In this document: positions 53,404 through 59,336 of the stretch, in pieces
Layout: each line of letters starts with the position of its first letter
How positions within the stretch are numbered: the stretch's first letter is position 1
From: Saccharibacillus sacchari DSM 19268
Lineage (GTDB): Bacteria > Bacillota > Bacilli > Paenibacillales > Paenibacillaceae
Length of the DNA stretch: 64,000 nucleotides
Assembly: GCF_000585395.1 (NCBI RefSeq)
Contig: NZ_KK073875.1
Coordinates: forward strand, 5,384,274-5,448,273
Direction: 5' to 3'
Program-made: the position numbers and the translations under genes
The notes under the pieces: generated by a model
Databases searched by the model: none
What the model saw: only the letters and a program-made list of their open reading frames with translations
What the model was told of the DNA's origin: nothing

Positions 53404-53964
53404 GTGATACTGATCATGAACAACAACATTCCGCTCAATCAAAAAAACATCATCCTGATCGGCTTCATGGGCGCGGGCAAAACGACGATCGGCCAACTGC
53501 TGGCAGAAAAGCTCGGCCGCGATTTCCTCGATGCCGATCAAGAGATCGAACGCAAACACGGCATGCCCGTCACGGAAATTTTCAAGTCGATGGGCGAACC
53601 CGCTTTTCGGCAGATGGAAAAAGACTACATCGTCGAACTGTGCCGCGAGTCGCGCGAGAAGGTCGTGTCGCTCGGCGGCGGATCGTTCATGCAGGACGAG
53701 ATCCGAAGCGCCTGTCTCGACAACGGCATCGTGTACCATCTGGATTTGACCTGGGAATCGTGGAAAGAACGCTTTGAAGACTTGATCGATACCCGTCCGA
53801 TTCTGCAAAGCCGTTCGCTGGAAGAGATCGAAGAACTATTCAACAGCCGGAAACGGGTTTACGCCGATAATCATCGCACCGTGGCTGTCGATACGCTGAC
53901 CCCCGAGCAAATTACCGACATTATGGTCGAGCAGATTCGGGCGAGTTGGGAAAACGAAGCTTAA
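53404..53964 (+). CDS. aroK: Shikimate kinase
   Basis: Phosphorylates shikimate with ATP in the aromatic amino acid pathway. 186 residues from the GTG at 53404, four bases after AAAGGAG; an ATG at 53416 is the alternative. Walker A GFMGAGKTTIG at about 23-33, shikimate-binding DADQEIERKHG with the Asp and a downstream Arg, and the GGG motif in SLGGGSF. The lid region carries TRPILQSRSLEE and the adenine-side R appears in NSRKRVYAD. It is the last ordinary chromosomal gene before the AT-rich defence island. Confidence 0.93.
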   Translation: MILIMNNNIPLNQKNIILIGFMGAGKTTIGQLLAEKLGRDFLDADQEIERKHGMPVTEIFKSMGEPAFRQMEKDYIVELCRESREKVVSLGGGSFMQDEIRSACLDNGIVYHLDLTWESWKERFEDLIDTRPILQSRSLEEIEELFNSRKRVYADNHRTVAVDTLTPEQITDIMVEQIRASWENEA

Positions 53965-53972
53965 TTCAAAAG

Positions 53973-54013
53973 AGCGGAACCGCGCAGTTTTACGCGCAGT
54001 GCCGCTTTTTTTT
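53973..54013 (+). terminator. Terminator of aroK
   Basis: AGCGGAACCGCGC / GCGCAGTGCCGCT with a loop of eight bases and then eight T. It marks the last normal chromosomal sequence before base composition drops. Confidence 0.88.
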
Positions 54014-54322
54014 ACGTTCAAGTCAAACTTGTCGCTTAAATCTTCTTTTCACCGTTTTAATGATCTTTCTCATAGCCAGCAATGTTAAGGTTTTTCGCGA
54101 GACTAGCCACACATTCATATGGTTTACGCTTTCGATCTTACGATCTCTCATGAATAACATAGATAATTGTTAGAGTAATATAGGAGGCGAATTACCACAC
54201 TCAGATATAAAGATCAAAGATCCAATTTAAATTTTTCCCAAAATACTATAGATCCTCTCTTCAGGTAAATTGTTTTGGATATTATCTTAAAACAGCAGTT
54301 CACAACGAAAATGTGTTGAGTG
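54014..54322. other. Gene-free left flank of the AT-rich island
   Basis: 309 bases with high A+T. No ORF with a ribosome site; AGGAGG at 54182 is not followed by a start. I found no direct repeat with the right flank near 58160, no integrase and no tRNA gene. The remaining part of the truncated GNAT gene is not here. Confidence 0.5.
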
Positions 54323-56206
54323 TTAAGCTTTTAACTCCAACACAAATCTAGAGGGGAACTGTCGCTTAATTCCCCAAGGAGTATTTTTAACTAGTGGATA
54401 AGTTAAATAACAAAGCCTCTTTGATCGTGTTACTGCAACAAACATATTATGTCTTTCTTCAATAATTTGTTTTGTATCTCTTGAACCATTGGATGCTCTT
54501 ACAGCCCTATAATCAGGGAAAACTCCTTCATTTAATCCCATTATAAATATAACATCGTATTCTAATCCCTTAGACATGTGTACAGTTGTTAAAATTACAC
54601 CTTTATCGCTGGTTGACTGTGTACTTCCTAGAGAAACAGTCCTCACAAAATTCCCTAACGATCGTTCACCAGAAGAAGAATTTTTCACATAAATATCCCA
54701 ATTATTTTCCCATGCTTTGATATCTTCACTAATAAGTATTTTTTCATGCTCATCAATTTGAGTTTCTGATAGATCAATAAAAGTTCTCAATACTTTTAAT
54801 GCTGTATGAAATTTTATTTCCTTTTCATTTTTTAATAGTAGATTCCAAGCATCAGTTAAAGCAGTCATTAAATTTTTCCAATAAACAGATAATTCATCAC
54901 TATTTATTAAATCATCAAAATTAATATCACTTTTGGGATAATTAATCAATTTGCGCAACTCTATTAAATGTATCTTATCCTTCTTATTTACTAACAGTCT
55001 GATTCCTAATTCAAATGCCTTCATGAAATCAGATTCACTTGAAAAAGAGCCTTTTGCTGAAACTTTGAGTGTATAATCCAAATTATTATCTTCAAGTAAT
55101 TCTTTCAATTTACTAAATACATATCGATTTCTAGCTATGACAGCAATCTGTTCAAGTGTAATCGTTTGATTTTCTACATCAGGATGTCCATTTTTCACTA
55201 AAAACATAATTTTAGAAACAATATATTCTGCTTCTAGATATTCATTTTGAAAGTCATGTATCTCAAACTCTCCTTTGTACATGCATTTTCCATATGCTTT
55301 GAAAGACTTCTCAATTCTATGTGCGGCCTCTATGACTAATTGTGATGAACGAAAGTTCTCAAAAAGTTGCATTCTGTGAGCATTAAACTCATTTACGAAA
55401 AAATTATTAATATAATCGTTTGAAGCTCCGCTAAAACCATAAATAGATTGGTTAGGATCTCCAACCATCGTAATACCGATTTCTTTTCCTGCAAGTGCCT
55501 TAATCACTTCATACTGAGCTTTATTTAAATCTTGAGCTTCGTCAATACAAATATACTTATAAACTTTTCTATACAATCGAGCTATACTATCTCGTTCGGT
55601 TAATATTTGGTACGTATATCTAAGTATATCATCAAAATCAATGACTCCCTGCTGCAGTAACATATTATCGTATTCTTCAAATAAAGTCTGGATTAACGGA
55701 TTGTCAGTATAATCATCTGAAAACTTCAGATTTCTTTTGGCAGTACTTAAATCATCAAGAAATTTTTTTATGATTATTTGATTATCTTTAGCAACTCCAC
55801 TTAAATATTTAGTCTTAAAAGAAGGAATAGTTTCAATTGCTTCTTTTAAAATATGAAGCCTATCATTATAAGATTCACAAATATGAAGGTCATCAGGCAA
55901 TCCAATTACACTTCCCCTAGAAGTTACGATATCTAAACAAAAACTATGAATCGTACCTATATAGGCATATTCTTTTAGTTTTTGTTTTCCTAATAAGGAA
56001 ATAAGTCTTTCTTTTAATTCTTCCGCAGCTTTATTACTAAAAGTAATAGCCAAAATTTTCTCGCCTTTTTTTAAATTTGAAATTAATTTATTAATTCGTT
56101 CCGTAAGAACTCTAGTTTTCCCACTACCTGCTCCGGCTATTACTAACAGGTTACCATCGGAGAAGTCAACAACTGCTTGTTGAGATTTAGATAAGGTGAT
56201 AGTCAT
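54323..56206 (-). CDS. gajB: UvrD/Rep-type helicase of a Gabija-like defence system
   Basis: Superfamily 1 helicase that in Gabija works with the nuclease GajA against phage DNA. 627 residues, longer than the roughly 500 of the reference GajB as I recall it. Motifs intact: I AGAGSGKTRVL (about 24-34), II YICIDEAQDLNKA, III MVGDPNQSIYGFSGA, IV FENFRSSQ, V LTTVHMSKGLEYDVIF and VI HNMFVAVTRSK. The start ATG overlaps the stop of the nuclease gene by one base (TAATG), so tight coupling is expected. Both genes are very AT-rich and codon use is unlike the rest of the window, indicating horizontal acquisition. A stand-alone UvrD-like helicase with an OLD partner is the alternative label. Confidence 0.85.
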   Translation of the reverse strand: MTITLSKSQQAVVDFSDGNLLVIAGAGSGKTRVLTERINKLISNLKKGEKILAITFSNKAAEELKERLISLLGKQKLKEYAYIGTIHSFCLDIVTSRGSVIGLPDDLHICESYNDRLHILKEAIETIPSFKTKYLSGVAKDNQIIIKKFLDDLSTAKRNLKFSDDYTDNPLIQTLFEEYDNMLLQQGVIDFDDILRYTYQILTERDSIARLYRKVYKYICIDEAQDLNKAQYEVIKALAGKEIGITMVGDPNQSIYGFSGASNDYINNFFVNEFNAHRMQLFENFRSSQLVIEAAHRIEKSFKAYGKCMYKGEFEIHDFQNEYLEAEYIVSKIMFLVKNGHPDVENQTITLEQIAVIARNRYVFSKLKELLEDNNLDYTLKVSAKGSFSSESDFMKAFELGIRLLVNKKDKIHLIELRKLINYPKSDINFDDLINSDELSVYWKNLMTALTDAWNLLLKNEKEIKFHTALKVLRTFIDLSETQIDEHEKILISEDIKAWENNWDIYVKNSSSGERSLGNFVRTVSLGSTQSTSDKGVILTTVHMSKGLEYDVIFIMGLNEGVFPDYRAVRASNGSRDTKQIIEERHNMFVAVTRSKRLCYLTYPLVKNTPWGIKRQFPSRFVLELKA

Positions 56207-58005
56207 TAAATCCCACCTTCTTCCATATTTTCTTTTATTTTATTAAAAAGTTCTTTTAGCTTTTGAGGTACTCTCCTTGATTTTGTTCTTATTTTACATA
56301 TCTCTTCTGCAATTGCTGTCGGATATTTGGTTTTATTAGACATAATACAATCTTTTGTAGCTCTATAATACCCTCCATCAGCATCGGCTTTATAGTTTCG
56401 AATTATTCCATGTTTACCCTTTTGATCGTTATAATGATCAATGTAGTAGCTCATATAGTTTGTATTACTTTCAACCTGACAAATCGCCTTTCTTATTTCT
56501 TTAATGTAACCTTGAGATAAACAATATGTTTCAAAACATTCATTATTTTCAATTATAAATATGTTTTCAAAATCAGTAAGATTAGGCTGACTTGACGCAC
56601 CTGTTAATTTTTTCAAACAGGCCCTTAAATCACTTAATGGCTGAGGTTCCCCGTCGCTAAATACATACCACTTTATATTTAGACGATCCAGAATCCTCAT
56701 GAATGGTGTATAATTATTACCACCTACTCCAATAATATTAATGCCTAATTCGAAAGGCTCCTTATTAAAAAACTCTCTTAGAAATACAGTTAATGCTTGT
56801 TCCTCGGTTTCTCCCTCTGCTAAAATAACAGCATTCGCATATAAAATTTCTCCCCTAGTGCTCATAACAGTTCTTCTTATTTTCTGTATATCTTCTTCAG
56901 TCAGCCCTTCCATTAAAAGAGGCAGTGCTTCAGATTGTGCTCCAACCTTTCTGACATATCTTATTTTTTCTAGATCGATTTGTGATAAAATATATGGTGA
57001 GTGTGTAGTAATGACCTTTTGCCCATTCATTTCATTAATATTGGAAAACAATTGTCTTTGTGCTTGAGGATGCACATGCGCTTCTGGTTCTTCTACGAGT
57101 ATTAGCGGTAAATATGCTAAATCATCTAGTGTTCTCTTTGTTATCTTGCTACTAATTTCTGCTTTTACAGTGGAAAATACTGCCCAACTACGCACACCTA
57201 GACCTAAATTTTCTACAGATGTAGGCAGCGAGTTCTTGTTTGTATAGTAGATATTTATTCCCCTATAGAGAGATTCTATATCTCTTGTAATCGGACTTAT
57301 ATCCACAATGCTCTCTTTATCTGCTGTTGTTACTTTTAGTTCACGACTGATTGATTTTAATATTTCACTTTCTCGAACGATTTTTTTATTCAATCTTTGT
57401 AATTGTGTTTCAATATTTCCTCTCACATTATCCGAAACTTTTATATTAGACGTTAACCTTCCCCACATCGATCCTCTGTCTCTAATATCTAACGAAATAT
57501 CTCTTTGAGCATTGACTAAAATATTCTCGATACCTTCCAACGTTTCTCTCCTAACAGAATTGCCAACTTGTGAGTTCCCTTCGTACTCCCAATTATCTAT
57601 TTTATATTTAAAATTAGTGTATATTTCTTTATCACTATCAAAAGATATCTCTGTTCGAAATGCAAAATATTCTTTATCTGTTGCGAGATCCAATGATACG
57701 CTATCTCCGAAAGCTCTTGACCACTGATCGTTAAAGGTGTCCTGTATATTACCATCCTCATCTATAGGTAATATTCTAATATCAATCCATATTTTTTTAG
57801 ATTCATTGTAAGGTTCATCAGCCGAAATATAAATGTCGTCCCTAAATACTGATGAGAAATCAAATGCTAAGTTTATAGCTTGAATAATATTTGATTTTCC
57901 TGAATTATTTTTACCGACGATCACAGTATACTTATCAAGCTTTAATGATATATTCTTTAGTGAGCGAAAATTATTTATGTACAAGTCACTTACAAGTATA
58001 CTCAC
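56206..58005 (-). CDS. gajA: OLD-type ATPase/TOPRIM nuclease of a Gabija-like defence system
   Basis: First gene of the pair. 599 residues, near the 578 of the reference GajA. The ATPase part has Walker A VGKNNSGKSN at about 30-39, Walker B LPLILVEEPEAHVHPQAQ and the switch His in TTHSPYIL. The C-terminal TOPRIM part begins at about 395 with VILAEGETEEQAL (catalytic Glu) and continues with a FSDGEP motif where OLD proteins usually have DxD. In Gabija this protein is a nucleotide-sensitive DNA endonuclease. GTG start at 58005 with AGGAGG seven bases upstream; a promoter lies at 58090-58119. Its base composition marks it as acquired DNA. Confidence 0.85.
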   Translation of the reverse strand: MSILVSDLYINNFRSLKNISLKLDKYTVIVGKNNSGKSNIIQAINLAFDFSSVFRDDIYISADEPYNESKKIWIDIRILPIDEDGNIQDTFNDQWSRAFGDSVSLDLATDKEYFAFRTEISFDSDKEIYTNFKYKIDNWEYEGNSQVGNSVRRETLEGIENILVNAQRDISLDIRDRGSMWGRLTSNIKVSDNVRGNIETQLQRLNKKIVRESEILKSISRELKVTTADKESIVDISPITRDIESLYRGINIYYTNKNSLPTSVENLGLGVRSWAVFSTVKAEISSKITKRTLDDLAYLPLILVEEPEAHVHPQAQRQLFSNINEMNGQKVITTHSPYILSQIDLEKIRYVRKVGAQSEALPLLMEGLTEEDIQKIRRTVMSTRGEILYANAVILAEGETEEQALTVFLREFFNKEPFELGINIIGVGGNNYTPFMRILDRLNIKWYVFSDGEPQPLSDLRACLKKLTGASSQPNLTDFENIFIIENNECFETYCLSQGYIKEIRKAICQVESNTNYMSYYIDHYNDQKGKHGIIRNYKADADGGYYRATKDCIMSNKTKYPTAIAEEICKIRTKSRRVPQKLKELFNKIKENMEEGGI

Positions 58006-58089
58006 GTTTTTTCCTCCTAATATTTTAGAATATCAAACAATCATCTTAAACCTTTCCTTCGACAGCATTATGTCGTATACCTCTTAGCT

Positions 58090-58119
58090 TTTATAAAAAT
58101 CGAAACAATTAGCTTTCAA
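58090..58119 (-). promoter_or_regulatory. Promoter of the Gabija-like pair
   Basis: On the minus strand TTGAAA, an 18-base spacer, and TATAAA. It is about 85 bases upstream of the nuclease start and inside the acquired AT-rich DNA, so the island appears to carry its own vegetative promoter. Confidence 0.5.
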
Positions 58120-58156
58120 ATGAAGTTATTTTCCCAATAAAAAATACATTTTTTTC

Positions 58157-58321
58157 TTATTCTCCGTAAAAGTCTTCCTGTACCCGCTCCGCGTCATACG
58201 GATGATCGCGTCCCTCGTACCATTCCAAAACAGCCGGGTCGGTCAACCATTTGAGCAGCAGCGGTGCATCTTCCGGCTCAAGCGTGCGCAGCGCAATATC
58301 CTCGTGTTCGAGTAAACGCAT
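58157..58321 (-). pseudogene. Truncated GNAT acetyltransferase (N-terminal fragment)
   Basis: 54 codons read directly from the sequence: MRLLEHEDIALRTLEPEDAP, then LLLKWLTDPAVLEWYEGRDH and PYDAERVQEDFYGE, then TAA. This is the N-terminus of an RimJ/AAC(6')-type acetyltransferase, which is normally about 170-180 residues; the acetyl-CoA loop is missing. G+C-rich normal codon use ends exactly at the stop, where the AT-rich island begins. GGGGG stands seven bases before the ATG, so the stub may still be translated. The lost 3' part is not found on the other flank at 54016-54322. Confidence 0.8.
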
Positions 58322-58351
58322 ATGAACCCCCTTTTATGTAAAAAAACTCGG

Positions 58352-58666
58352 TCAATGTTCGATTGCAATATGTAAAACTGCTCGCCCGGCTGCTTCCATG
58401 TAGACGTGTGCTCCTCCGATATCGGCAGACGTAACCTCCATCCAATTGGCATTCGTCAGGTCCGCCGCATAGAAACGCACGACGATGCAATCCCGGCCTT
58501 GATAACGGTCTTTGCGCATGGAGATATGAACGCGGTTCAAGTCGTAGCTGTTCACCCAATTCGTGCGCTTCACGGCTTCGATGGCTTTAAGCAGGAACGG
58601 CGTATAAGCTTTATCGATTTTCAAAAATGCGGGTTCTTCCGTATCGAGGTCATTCGACGAATCCAT
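58352..58666 (-). CDS. Hypothetical protein
   Basis: 104 residues from ATG 58666, ten bases after AAGGAGG. An alpha/beta protein without signal or membrane segment. It opens MDSSNDLDTEEPAFLKIDKA and contains DLNRVHISMRKDRYQGRDCIVVRFYA, which may form a small antiparallel sheet. No family recognised. Its ribosome site is inside the 3' end of the upstream phospholipase-like gene (stop at 58671), so both are on one message. Confidence 0.7.
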   Translation of the reverse strand: MDSSNDLDTEEPAFLKIDKAYTPFLLKAIEAVKRTNWVNSYDLNRVHISMRKDRYQGRDCIVVRFYAADLTNANWMEVTSADIGGAHVYMEAAGRAVLHIAIEH

Positions 58667-58670
58667 TGGG

Positions 58671-59336
58671 CTAAGCCTCCTTTGCGCCATGAATCATTTC
58701 AACATTCCGTCGAATGATTGGCGTAACTCCCCACTCCGCAAACAATCGGCGAAGGTCTTGTCCGTTTGCGAGAATAAACTGTTCCAGTCTTTCGGGCGAC
58801 AACACCTCAAGCGAGACTTTCGATTCGTCAGCCGGTTCTTCCTGTAAGCCGAGCAGCTTCATATCCCGATAGGCATGTACTTCTTTCGCGGACAACCCGC
58901 CGAATTCGAAAGCACGATCCGATTGGAGTTGACGCAGCCATGCCCGAGCATCCGGCCTTTCTTGCAGCAGCATGAACTCGATCCGCTTCACTTCCCGGTG
59001 ATACTGTTTGCGACCGTCCGAACGGGCTTCGTAGCCGGGATAAATCTCGAACGTCCAGCGTCGATCCGTATAGATGTGGGCGATGTAGCCAAGCAGATAA
59101 TGCAGGAACGCCGGATCGGCTTCGATGTGCTCGGCGTTGGCTTTGAATACGTCGTGCAGCTGCTCATCCGTCAAAAACTCGCCTTCGACGATCATCAGAT
59201 GCGTTTTTGCTTTTTCGCCGCGATCGTTGCTGCGCACATGCACGGCATCCGGCGCCAAGCTTCCTATCAATAGTTCGGCGGAAGGTTCGGGCATGATAAC
59301 CGCTGCAACGGCCAGGTGAACCATGGGCCAAGGCAT
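58671..59336 (-). CDS. Zinc-dependent phospholipase C-like protein
   Basis: 221 residues from ATG 59336 with AAGGAGG before it; the frame extends 32 codons upstream without support. The start MPWPMVHLAVA carries a His near the N-terminus, then SLAPDAVH, and a helix LHYLLGYIAHIYTDRRW with two His and an Asp. That spacing matches the zinc-dependent phospholipase C family (all-helical, metal-binding His). No signal peptide is evident, which makes a secreted lipase unlikely; the substrate is unknown. Paired with the small gene downstream. Confidence 0.7.
   Translation of the reverse strand: MPWPMVHLAVAAVIMPEPSAELLIGSLAPDAVHVRSNDRGEKAKTHLMIVEGEFLTDEQLHDVFKANAEHIEADPAFLHYLLGYIAHIYTDRRWTFEIYPGYEARSDGRKQYHREVKRIEFMLLQERPDARAWLRQLQSDRAFEFGGLSAKEVHAYRDMKLLGLQEEPADESKVSLEVLSPERLEQFILANGQDLRRLFAEWGVTPIIRRNVEMIHGAKEA

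What the first reader, a model, noticed from the sequence alone, without database searches (positions are those of the whole stretch)
54323..58005. Gabija-like OLD nuclease plus UvrD helicase pair on an acquired AT-rich segment
The order nuclease then helicase, the one-base overlap, and intact ATPase, TOPRIM and helicase motifs match Gabija (GajA/GajB). The DNA is clearly much more AT-rich than the flanks. The helicase is about 130 residues longer than the reference GajB as I recall it, so this may be a distinct subtype.
Basis: partly seen in the sequence, partly recalled or inferred. Interest (0 to 1): 0.65.

Follow-up and report, generated by a model that had tools for sequence, protein, structure and literature searches.

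The report
Acquired Gabija-type anti-phage gene pair
A two-gene anti-phage defence cassette of the known Gabija kind has landed in this chromosome; its branch of the family carries a fuller helicase and a slightly altered nuclease active site compared with the well-studied Bacillus cereus version.

Summary
The pair is real: gajA-like 58005-56206 and gajB-like 56206-54323, both on the minus strand, one-base overlap. PADLOC's Gabija models match both over full length (575.6 and 712.2 bits). It lies in a 4.1-kb stretch of 31.6% GC against 53.7%, inserted between aroK and a small conserved gene; three relatives lack it there. Of 16 genus genomes only this one has it (E<=1e-40).

The helicase is not unusually long for the sampled relatives: it sits in a 33-member clade, the same set in both gene trees, with helicases of 604-655 aa. 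B. cereus-like helicases (502-506 aa, three stand-ins) are the short ones.

The published TOPRIM DxD is D-x-E in 26 of 33 clade members and 0 of 56 others. The UvrD separation-pin hairpin, reported missing in B. cereus GajB (PMC10681800), appears to be kept, though the GIG motif is not. A DNA-unwinding GajB is therefore plausible, but not shown.

The parts
56206..58005 (-). gajA-like OLD nuclease (ABC ATPase + TOPRIM), 599 aa, GTG start
   Evidence: (PDLC00067, 575.6 bits, residues 2-595)
54323..56206 (-). gajB-like UvrD-family SF1A helicase, 627 aa
   Evidence: (PDLC00132, 712.2 bits, residues 3-626)
58013..58018 (-). AGGAGG, ribosome-binding-site-like, seven bases before the gajA GTG
   Evidence: sequence
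56647..56655 (-). codons of D451-G-E453, the TOPRIM motif that stands where DxD is expected
54344..54424 (-). codons of the separation-pin-like hairpin after helicase motif VI (residues 595-621; strands 595-604, 606-609, 612-615 in the model)
54013..58159 (.). AT-rich inserted segment (about 4147 bases, GC 0.316); left end from the alignment with G071, right end judged from where the GNAT similarity stops
58166..58321 (-). remnant of a GNAT acetyltransferase gene (first 52 codons) at the upstream edge of the insert
53404..53964 (+). shikimate kinase gene (aroK), conserved flank
58352..58690 (-). small conserved flanking gene of unknown function, other side of the insert

Best explanation
This is a horizontally acquired Gabija-type (class 2 OLD) anti-phage system of a clade distinct from the B. 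cereus VD045 one. Inferred working: GajA forms an ATP-regulated multimer bearing TOPRIM nuclease sites, and GajB docks on it. GajB, which here keeps full-size 1B and 2B regions and an apparent separation pin, loads on free or unprotected DNA ends or single-stranded tracts of incoming phage DNA and translocates or unwinds using ATP. That, together with changes in nucleotide level, releases GajA to cut the DNA. Shown here: gene pair, intact ATPase and helicase motifs, family, joint inheritance of the two genes, acquisition. Inferred from the literature on other Gabija systems: complex formation, DNA cleavage, anti-phage effect, end sensing. Inferred from sequence and model alone: that this GajB can unwind DNA.
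For: PADLOC full-length matches to GajA and GajB models. The nuclease model's best matches are B. cereus GajA chains over nearly the full length (Z 22.5, rmsd 5.0, 490 aligned; Foldseek ranks 1-4). The helicase model matches UvrD-DNA complexes (Z 46.3, rmsd 3.6, 583 aligned of 627). The same 33 members form the window clade in both gene trees, and the tree distances of the two genes correlate (r 0.896; 0 of 999 permutations as high). Acquisition: (0 of 15 other genus genomes). Nearest relative, 67% and 66% identical, on a predicted viral contig; clade members on plasmids. Mechanism taken from PMC10781630 and PMC10822852 (passages) and PMC12407980 (abstract and passages). The host has its own AddA (1168.6 bits, over the cut-off), so the end-protection logic proposed in PMC12407980 is possible here.
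Against: No direct evidence of defence. Single-sequence similarity to B. cereus GajA and GajB is weak (45.8 and 50.8 bits). B. cereus GajB has no detectable unwinding (PMC10681800), and the GIG motif is missing here too. The TOPRIM motif is D-x-E, not DxD. The complex was not modelled.
Confidence: 0.85

Rival explanations
1. Same Gabija system, but GajB does not unwind DNA; as in B. cereus it is a structural subunit and nucleotide sensor that tightens GajA's substrate choice.
For: B. cereus GajB shows no helicase activity (PMC10681800, passages) and is proposed as a nucleotide sensor (PMC10822852, passages). The GIG motif is gapped in 33 of 33 clade members. Two clade members (G235 and a P. 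amylolyticus plasmid) have broken Walker A and DEAQD motifs and may work without helicase ATPase.
Against: The window helicase keeps its motifs, PcrA-sized 1B and 2B regions and a separation-pin-like hairpin.
Confidence: 0.4
2. A nuclease-helicase pair for chromosome repair or DNA maintenance, not defence.
For: The helicase is nearer in sequence to PcrA (195.5 bits) than to solved GajB (50.8 bits); a role in repair or replication was the first guess for class 2 OLD genes (PMC6755086, passages).
Against: Absent at E<=1e-40 from 15 of 15 other genus genomes; rare in wider draws (1 of 398 phylum genomes at E<=1e-30; 2 of 299 class genomes at E<=1e-100; this genome included in both); foreign composition; relatives on plasmids and predicted viral contigs. 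The genome has its own PcrA (1055.2 bits) and AddA (1168.6 bits).
Confidence: 0.06
3. A decaying, inactive cassette.
For: Foreign DNA that truncated a host gene; TOPRIM residue change.
Against: Both frames are open at full length, catalytic residues and motifs are intact apart from the D-to-E change, and that form is shared by 26 of 33 clade members, so it is more likely selected than decay.
Confidence: 0.04

Closest known systems
Gabija of Bacillus cereus VD045 (GajA/GajB)
   Same: Gene order nuclease then helicase, ABC ATPase + TOPRIM nuclease, SF1A helicase, overall fold of the nuclease.
   Different: Different clade in both trees, judged with three relatives of it as stand-ins; helicase about 120-130 aa longer, with larger 1B and 2B regions; separation-pin-like hairpin kept; TOPRIM D-x-E.
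PADLOC Gabija subfamilies PDLC00067 (GajA) and PDLC00132 (GajB)
   Same: Best and full-length match of both proteins; the same two models are best for the relatives in G188 and G235.
   Different: No difference seen; the subfamily is already filed under Gabija. I found no biochemistry described for it.
Class 2 OLD nucleases of B. pseudomallei and X. campestris (PDB 6nk8, 6njv)
   Same: TOPRIM with E397, E401, D451, E492 and K558 invariant in 31 aligned proteins, the window's included; matched by sequence.
   Different: The second aspartate of DxD is glutamate; that aspartate is described as absolutely conserved in class 2 (PMC6755086, passages).
UvrD/PcrA/Rep helicases
   Same: Whole-length fold and motifs; pin-like hairpin.
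   Different: No GIG motif at the aligned place; ends soon after the hairpin; tied to a nuclease gene.
Hachiman (HamAB)
   Same: Two-gene nuclease plus sensor-helicase logic (PMC10925250, PMC12278908: starts of abstracts in the listing).
   Different: Recalled as a different nuclease family and a superfamily 2 helicase; not compared here.

Membership tests
Gabija (class 2 OLD with UvrD-type partner) | OLD-type nuclease: ABC ATPase with C-terminal TOPRIM | tested here: met
   PF13175, PF13304, PF20469 above cut-off; PDLC00067 full length; fold
Gabija (class 2 OLD with UvrD-type partner) | Adjacent UvrD/PcrA/Rep-like helicase gene, often overlapping | tested here: met
   One-base overlap; PDLC00132 full length; PF00580, PF13361 above cut-off
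Gabija (class 2 OLD with UvrD-type partner) | Both proteins inside one monophyletic GajA clade and one GajB clade | tested here: inconclusive
   Window clade is well supported (99 and 100) but lies apart from the B. cereus-like clade; OLD rows without a helicase in view fall among class 2 rows in a tree without an outgroup
Gabija (class 2 OLD with UvrD-type partner) | GajA-GajB 4:4 complex | not testable with these tools
   No multimer prediction available
Gabija (class 2 OLD with UvrD-type partner) | Anti-phage activity | not testable with these tools
   Needs experiment
Gabija (class 2 OLD with UvrD-type partner) | Accessory, horizontally moved gene pair rather than core genes | tested here: met
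   0 of 15 other genus genomes at E<=1e-40; insertion site and composition
Published class 2 OLD active-site consensus (not used here as a membership criterion) | TOPRIM glutamates, first aspartate of DxD, helical-domain acidic residue, catalytic lysine | tested here: met
   E397, E401, D451, E492, K558 invariant in 31 aligned proteins
Published class 2 OLD active-site consensus (not used here as a membership criterion) | Second aspartate of DxD | tested here: not met
   E453 in the window; E in 26 of 33 clade members, D in 7 of 33; D in 56 of 56 others
UvrD-type helicase | SF1A motifs, Walker A and DExQD | tested here: met
UvrD-type helicase | Separation pin | tested here: met
   Aligned segment up to the PSRF end and beta strands in the model; a sequence and model inference only
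UvrD-type helicase | GIG motif in 2B | tested here: not met
   Gapped in 33 of 33 clade members against the host PcrA in one MAFFT alignment
UvrD-type helicase | Gating helix | not tested
   Not examined

The most novel reading that the evidence does not exclude
A cross-phylum branch of Gabija keeps a true DNA-unwinding, UvrD-like GajB and a D-x-E metal site in GajA. In this branch, helicase-driven scanning of DNA ends would be the sensor, whereas the B. cereus branch lost unwinding and kept GajB as a scaffold and nucleotide sensor; a sub-branch (G235, P. amylolyticus) has lost the helicase ATPase once more.
Probability: 0.4. Interest if true: 0.55.

Novelty: new variant of a known kind. Interest (0 to 1): 0.36.

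Why it matters
Gabija is one of the commonest anti-phage systems, and whether its helicase subunit unwinds DNA is unsettled: the helicase tests in the passages read here used the B. cereus protein, which is reported to lack the UvrD elements needed for it. A clade whose GajB seems to keep one of these elements, has natural ATPase-defective members, and includes E. coli copies (13 of 5426 genomes hold a match; 11 of the 18 records are at least 99% identical to the query and 7 are 60-80%) would make that question directly testable. The D-x-E site also qualifies a statement of absolute DxD conservation in class 2 OLD nucleases. The locus itself would be called Gabija by existing profiles, so the surprise is modest.

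Tried and rejected
Helicase extension as a peculiarity of this locus: rejected; 604-655 aa is the range in its clade. Core chromosomal gene: rejected. Signs of a mobile element at the insert ends: no tRNA in the window; besides the pair, the only open frame of 80 codons or more inside the insert is an antisense one; no evident target-site duplication in the repeats shown (20 of 34 direct families and 25 of 89 inverted pairs, minimum 10 bases), so shorter duplications are not excluded. The only inverted arms of that list lying just outside both ends (54002-54022 and 58331-58351) are 76% complementary and look like chance. Gene remnants in 54013-54322: no long open frame. Homologues in annotated phage records: 11 of 50,697 records match, none covering 80% of the query. 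Promoter and terminator scans: not above shuffles. Search of 398 phylum genomes at E<=1e-30 found only this genome; the profile search of 299 class genomes at E<=1e-100 found two, this one included. GajB chains do not appear among the 50 rows listed for the helicase model; that is not evidence that the folds differ.

Limits of the counts. Of 100 loci (L021-L120), 22 were dropped before the pair counts because one gene was not found or was cut at a contig end. The pin pattern was written from the clade: 29 of 33 clade rows pass both parts and 4 of 33 the end part only; of 58 rows outside, 2 pass both, 33 the end part only, 1 the tip part only, 22 neither. The host's own PcrA is among those that fail the tip part (its tip reads LFG). 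B. cereus GajA and GajB themselves are not in the trees; three plasmid relatives (55, 44 and 38% identical to the typed GajA stretch) stand for them. The 9 rows without a helicase rest on 1.5-kb flanks around the TOPRIM match; L161 ends near its contig end, so its label is unsure. Trees are quick searches with SH-aLRT support only, and several long branches were flagged. The papers named were seen as passages, abstracts or listings, none as a whole text; word searches for the clade traits showed no description of them, in a library of open-licence papers only.
Full report
What is there. Two genes lie on the minus strand: a 599-codon nuclease gene (58005-56206, GTG) and a 627-codon helicase gene (56206-54323, ATG), overlapping by one base. 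An AGGAGG stands seven bases before the GTG. The nuclease has ABC-ATPase domains and an OLD-type TOPRIM above Pfam cut-offs, the helicase UvrD N- and C-terminal domains. In PADLOC the best models are GajA PDLC00067 (575.6 bits, residues 2-595) and GajB PDLC00132 (712.2 bits, residues 3-626). NCBIfam gives no match above its cut-offs.

Acquisition. The stretch 54013-58159 has GC 0.316 against 0.537 elsewhere in the window; the lowest of 259 equal-sized stretches is 0.502. Third-position GC is 0.24 and 0.205 in the pair against 0.575-0.73 in four nearby genes. At E<=1e-40 the nuclease is found in 3 of 295 family genomes, this one included, and in none of the 15 other genus genomes. Three relatives keep aroK and the small gene 58352-58690 side by side without the pair. 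G061 has fewer than 90 bases between them and no GNAT gene. G071, 90-97% identical in flanking DNA, has 94 bases holding an 11-residue match to the end of the GNAT gene. G091 has an intact 184-aa GNAT acetyltransferase gene there. The window keeps the first 52 codons of that GNAT gene (58166-58321, 81% identical) and then runs into the AT-rich DNA. The simplest reading is that the cassette replaced the rest of the gene, at a spot that varies between relatives. No tRNA and no evident target-site duplication was found.

Where relatives live. The nearest relative, 67% (nuclease) and 66% (helicase) identical, is on a predicted viral contig of 16 kb and aligns at 69.7% DNA identity over the pair. 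Clade members are on plasmids of Paenibacillus, E. coli and Acinetobacter, with like hits in Klebsiella, Enterobacter and Aeromonas plasmids. The E. coli form matches in 13 of 5426 genomes; 11 of the 18 records are at least 99% identical and 7 are 60-80%.

Is the long helicase odd? Of 100 loci, 78 held a complete pair in the same order; helicases run from 455 to 688 aa, median 624.5. The B. cereus-like proteins (three plasmid relatives) are 502-506 aa. Motif spacing shows where the difference lies. Motif Ia to II is 167 residues in the window, 161 in the host PcrA and 113-132 in the B. cereus-like rows. Motif IV to V is 257, 277 and 195-207 (the host protein scores 1055.2 bits against the PcrA model). 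The B. cereus-like helicase therefore has smaller 1B and 2B regions; the window one has PcrA-sized ones.

Clade. Trees of 89 nucleases and 91 helicases (quick IQ-TREE, SH-aLRT) put the window pair in the same 33-member clade (support 99 and 100), apart from the B. cereus-like rows. Distances in the two trees correlate (r 0.896, none of 999 permutations as high; 33 and 33 members, no difference). The two genes have travelled together. In a 73-row tree with 9 OLD proteins that have no helicase in view, 7 of the 9 fell in a weakly joined group with the B. cereus-like rows, one on the window's side on a long branch, and one (L161, label unsure) elsewhere among class 2 rows. Class 2 as one clade is therefore not shown.

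Active site. Paper numbers for B. cereus GajA are E379, E383, D432, D434, D511, D513 and K541 (PMC10822852, passages). The residues that stand in the places of E379, E383, D432, the helical-domain acidic residue and K541 are invariant in 31 aligned relatives, the window's included (E397, E401, D451, E492, K558). The second aspartate of DxD is glutamate: 26 of 33 clade members have E and 7 of 33 have D; 56 of 56 outside have D; the first D is in 89 of 89. Schiltz et al. (PMC6755086, passages) call these residues absolutely conserved in class 2, report that the second aspartate hydrogen-bonds waters that bind metal A, and found that single alanine changes had no discernible effect on cleavage. 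A working nuclease is thus the likely reading.

Structures. Helicase model: mean pLDDT 87.8, pTM 0.83; best matches are UvrD-DNA complexes (Foldseek E 8.6e-40; Z 46.3, rmsd 3.6, 583 aligned). Nuclease model: pLDDT 87.3, pTM 0.80; best matches are B. cereus GajA (Foldseek ranks 1-4; Z 22.5, rmsd 5.0, 490 aligned), ahead of Thermus OLD (Z 19.8, rmsd 6.2, 452 aligned). SMC heads reach Z 20.7, but over the ATPase part only.

Helicase or scaffold? The study of B. cereus GajB (PMC10681800, passages) reports that gating helix, GIG motif and separation pin are missing and that no unwinding is seen; the Nature study (PMC10781630, passages) notes instead that its helicase motifs are all there and that its 2B domain is partly rotated. 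Here the segment after motif VI aligns with that of PcrA, UvrD and Rep up to its PSRF end, the model shows strands 595-604, 606-609 and 612-615, and 29 of 33 clade members share an aromatic tip and the end motif. The three B. cereus-like rows have neither. That pattern was written from the clade, and the host PcrA fails its tip part, so it shows conservation within the clade more than identity with UvrD. The GIG motif is gapped in 33 of 33, and the gating helix was not examined. I put unwinding at somewhat better than even.

Mechanism. From other Gabija systems: GajA and GajB form a 4:4 octamer in B. cereus (PMC10822852, passages and abstract start; PMC10781630, passages), cleavage is held back by ATP, and in P. 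aeruginosa Gabija is proposed to act on linear DNA from which RecBCD is kept away (PMC12407980, abstract and passages). Cleavage may differ between systems: GajA of B. cereus is sequence-specific, that of Ligilactobacillus salivarius is reported as non-specific (PMC13304284, passages). The host here has AddA, the functional counterpart of RecB in this group (counterpart role recalled; 1168.6 bits), so the same logic is possible. All of this is inference for the present pair.

Verdict. An acquired Gabija-type system, ordinary as a find, from a branch with two features worth testing. The subfamily is already inside PADLOC's Gabija set; word searches of an open-licence paper library showed no account of the D-x-E form or of pin retention.

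Noticed in passing
L016 6920-12184 (same genome, about 1.018-1.023 Mb): A second Gabija-type locus: NERD-UvrD helicase, then GajA (PDLC00066), then a 545-aa GajB (PDLC00123), overlapping genes; the GajA-GajB part has GC 0.307 in a stretch of 0.459. A PLD/ResIII helicase and a Schlafen-AlbA protein follow.
   Followed up: partly
L015 4838-6712 and L125 6771-8639: GajB relatives in G235 and on a P. amylolyticus plasmid have broken Walker A (GTGKQ, QTGIQ) and FEAQD in place of DEAQD: natural ATPase-defective helicases beside nucleases that keep the TOPRIM residues.
   Followed up: partly
L127 534-3974 and L128 531-3968: Two Acinetobacter plasmids carry a large helicase gene (ResIII and HsdR-like domains found in the L127 copy; the L128 copy not scanned) immediately upstream of gajAB pairs that belong to two different clades.
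   Followed up: no
window 58166-58321: A GNAT acetyltransferase gene cut short at the insertion; the same gene is mostly deleted in G071, not found in G061 and intact in G091, so the aroK flank is a variable spot.
   Followed up: yes
L101 1-9791: The predicted viral contig with the closest relative also carries an AAA ATPase gene; its viral label was not checked.
   Followed up: no
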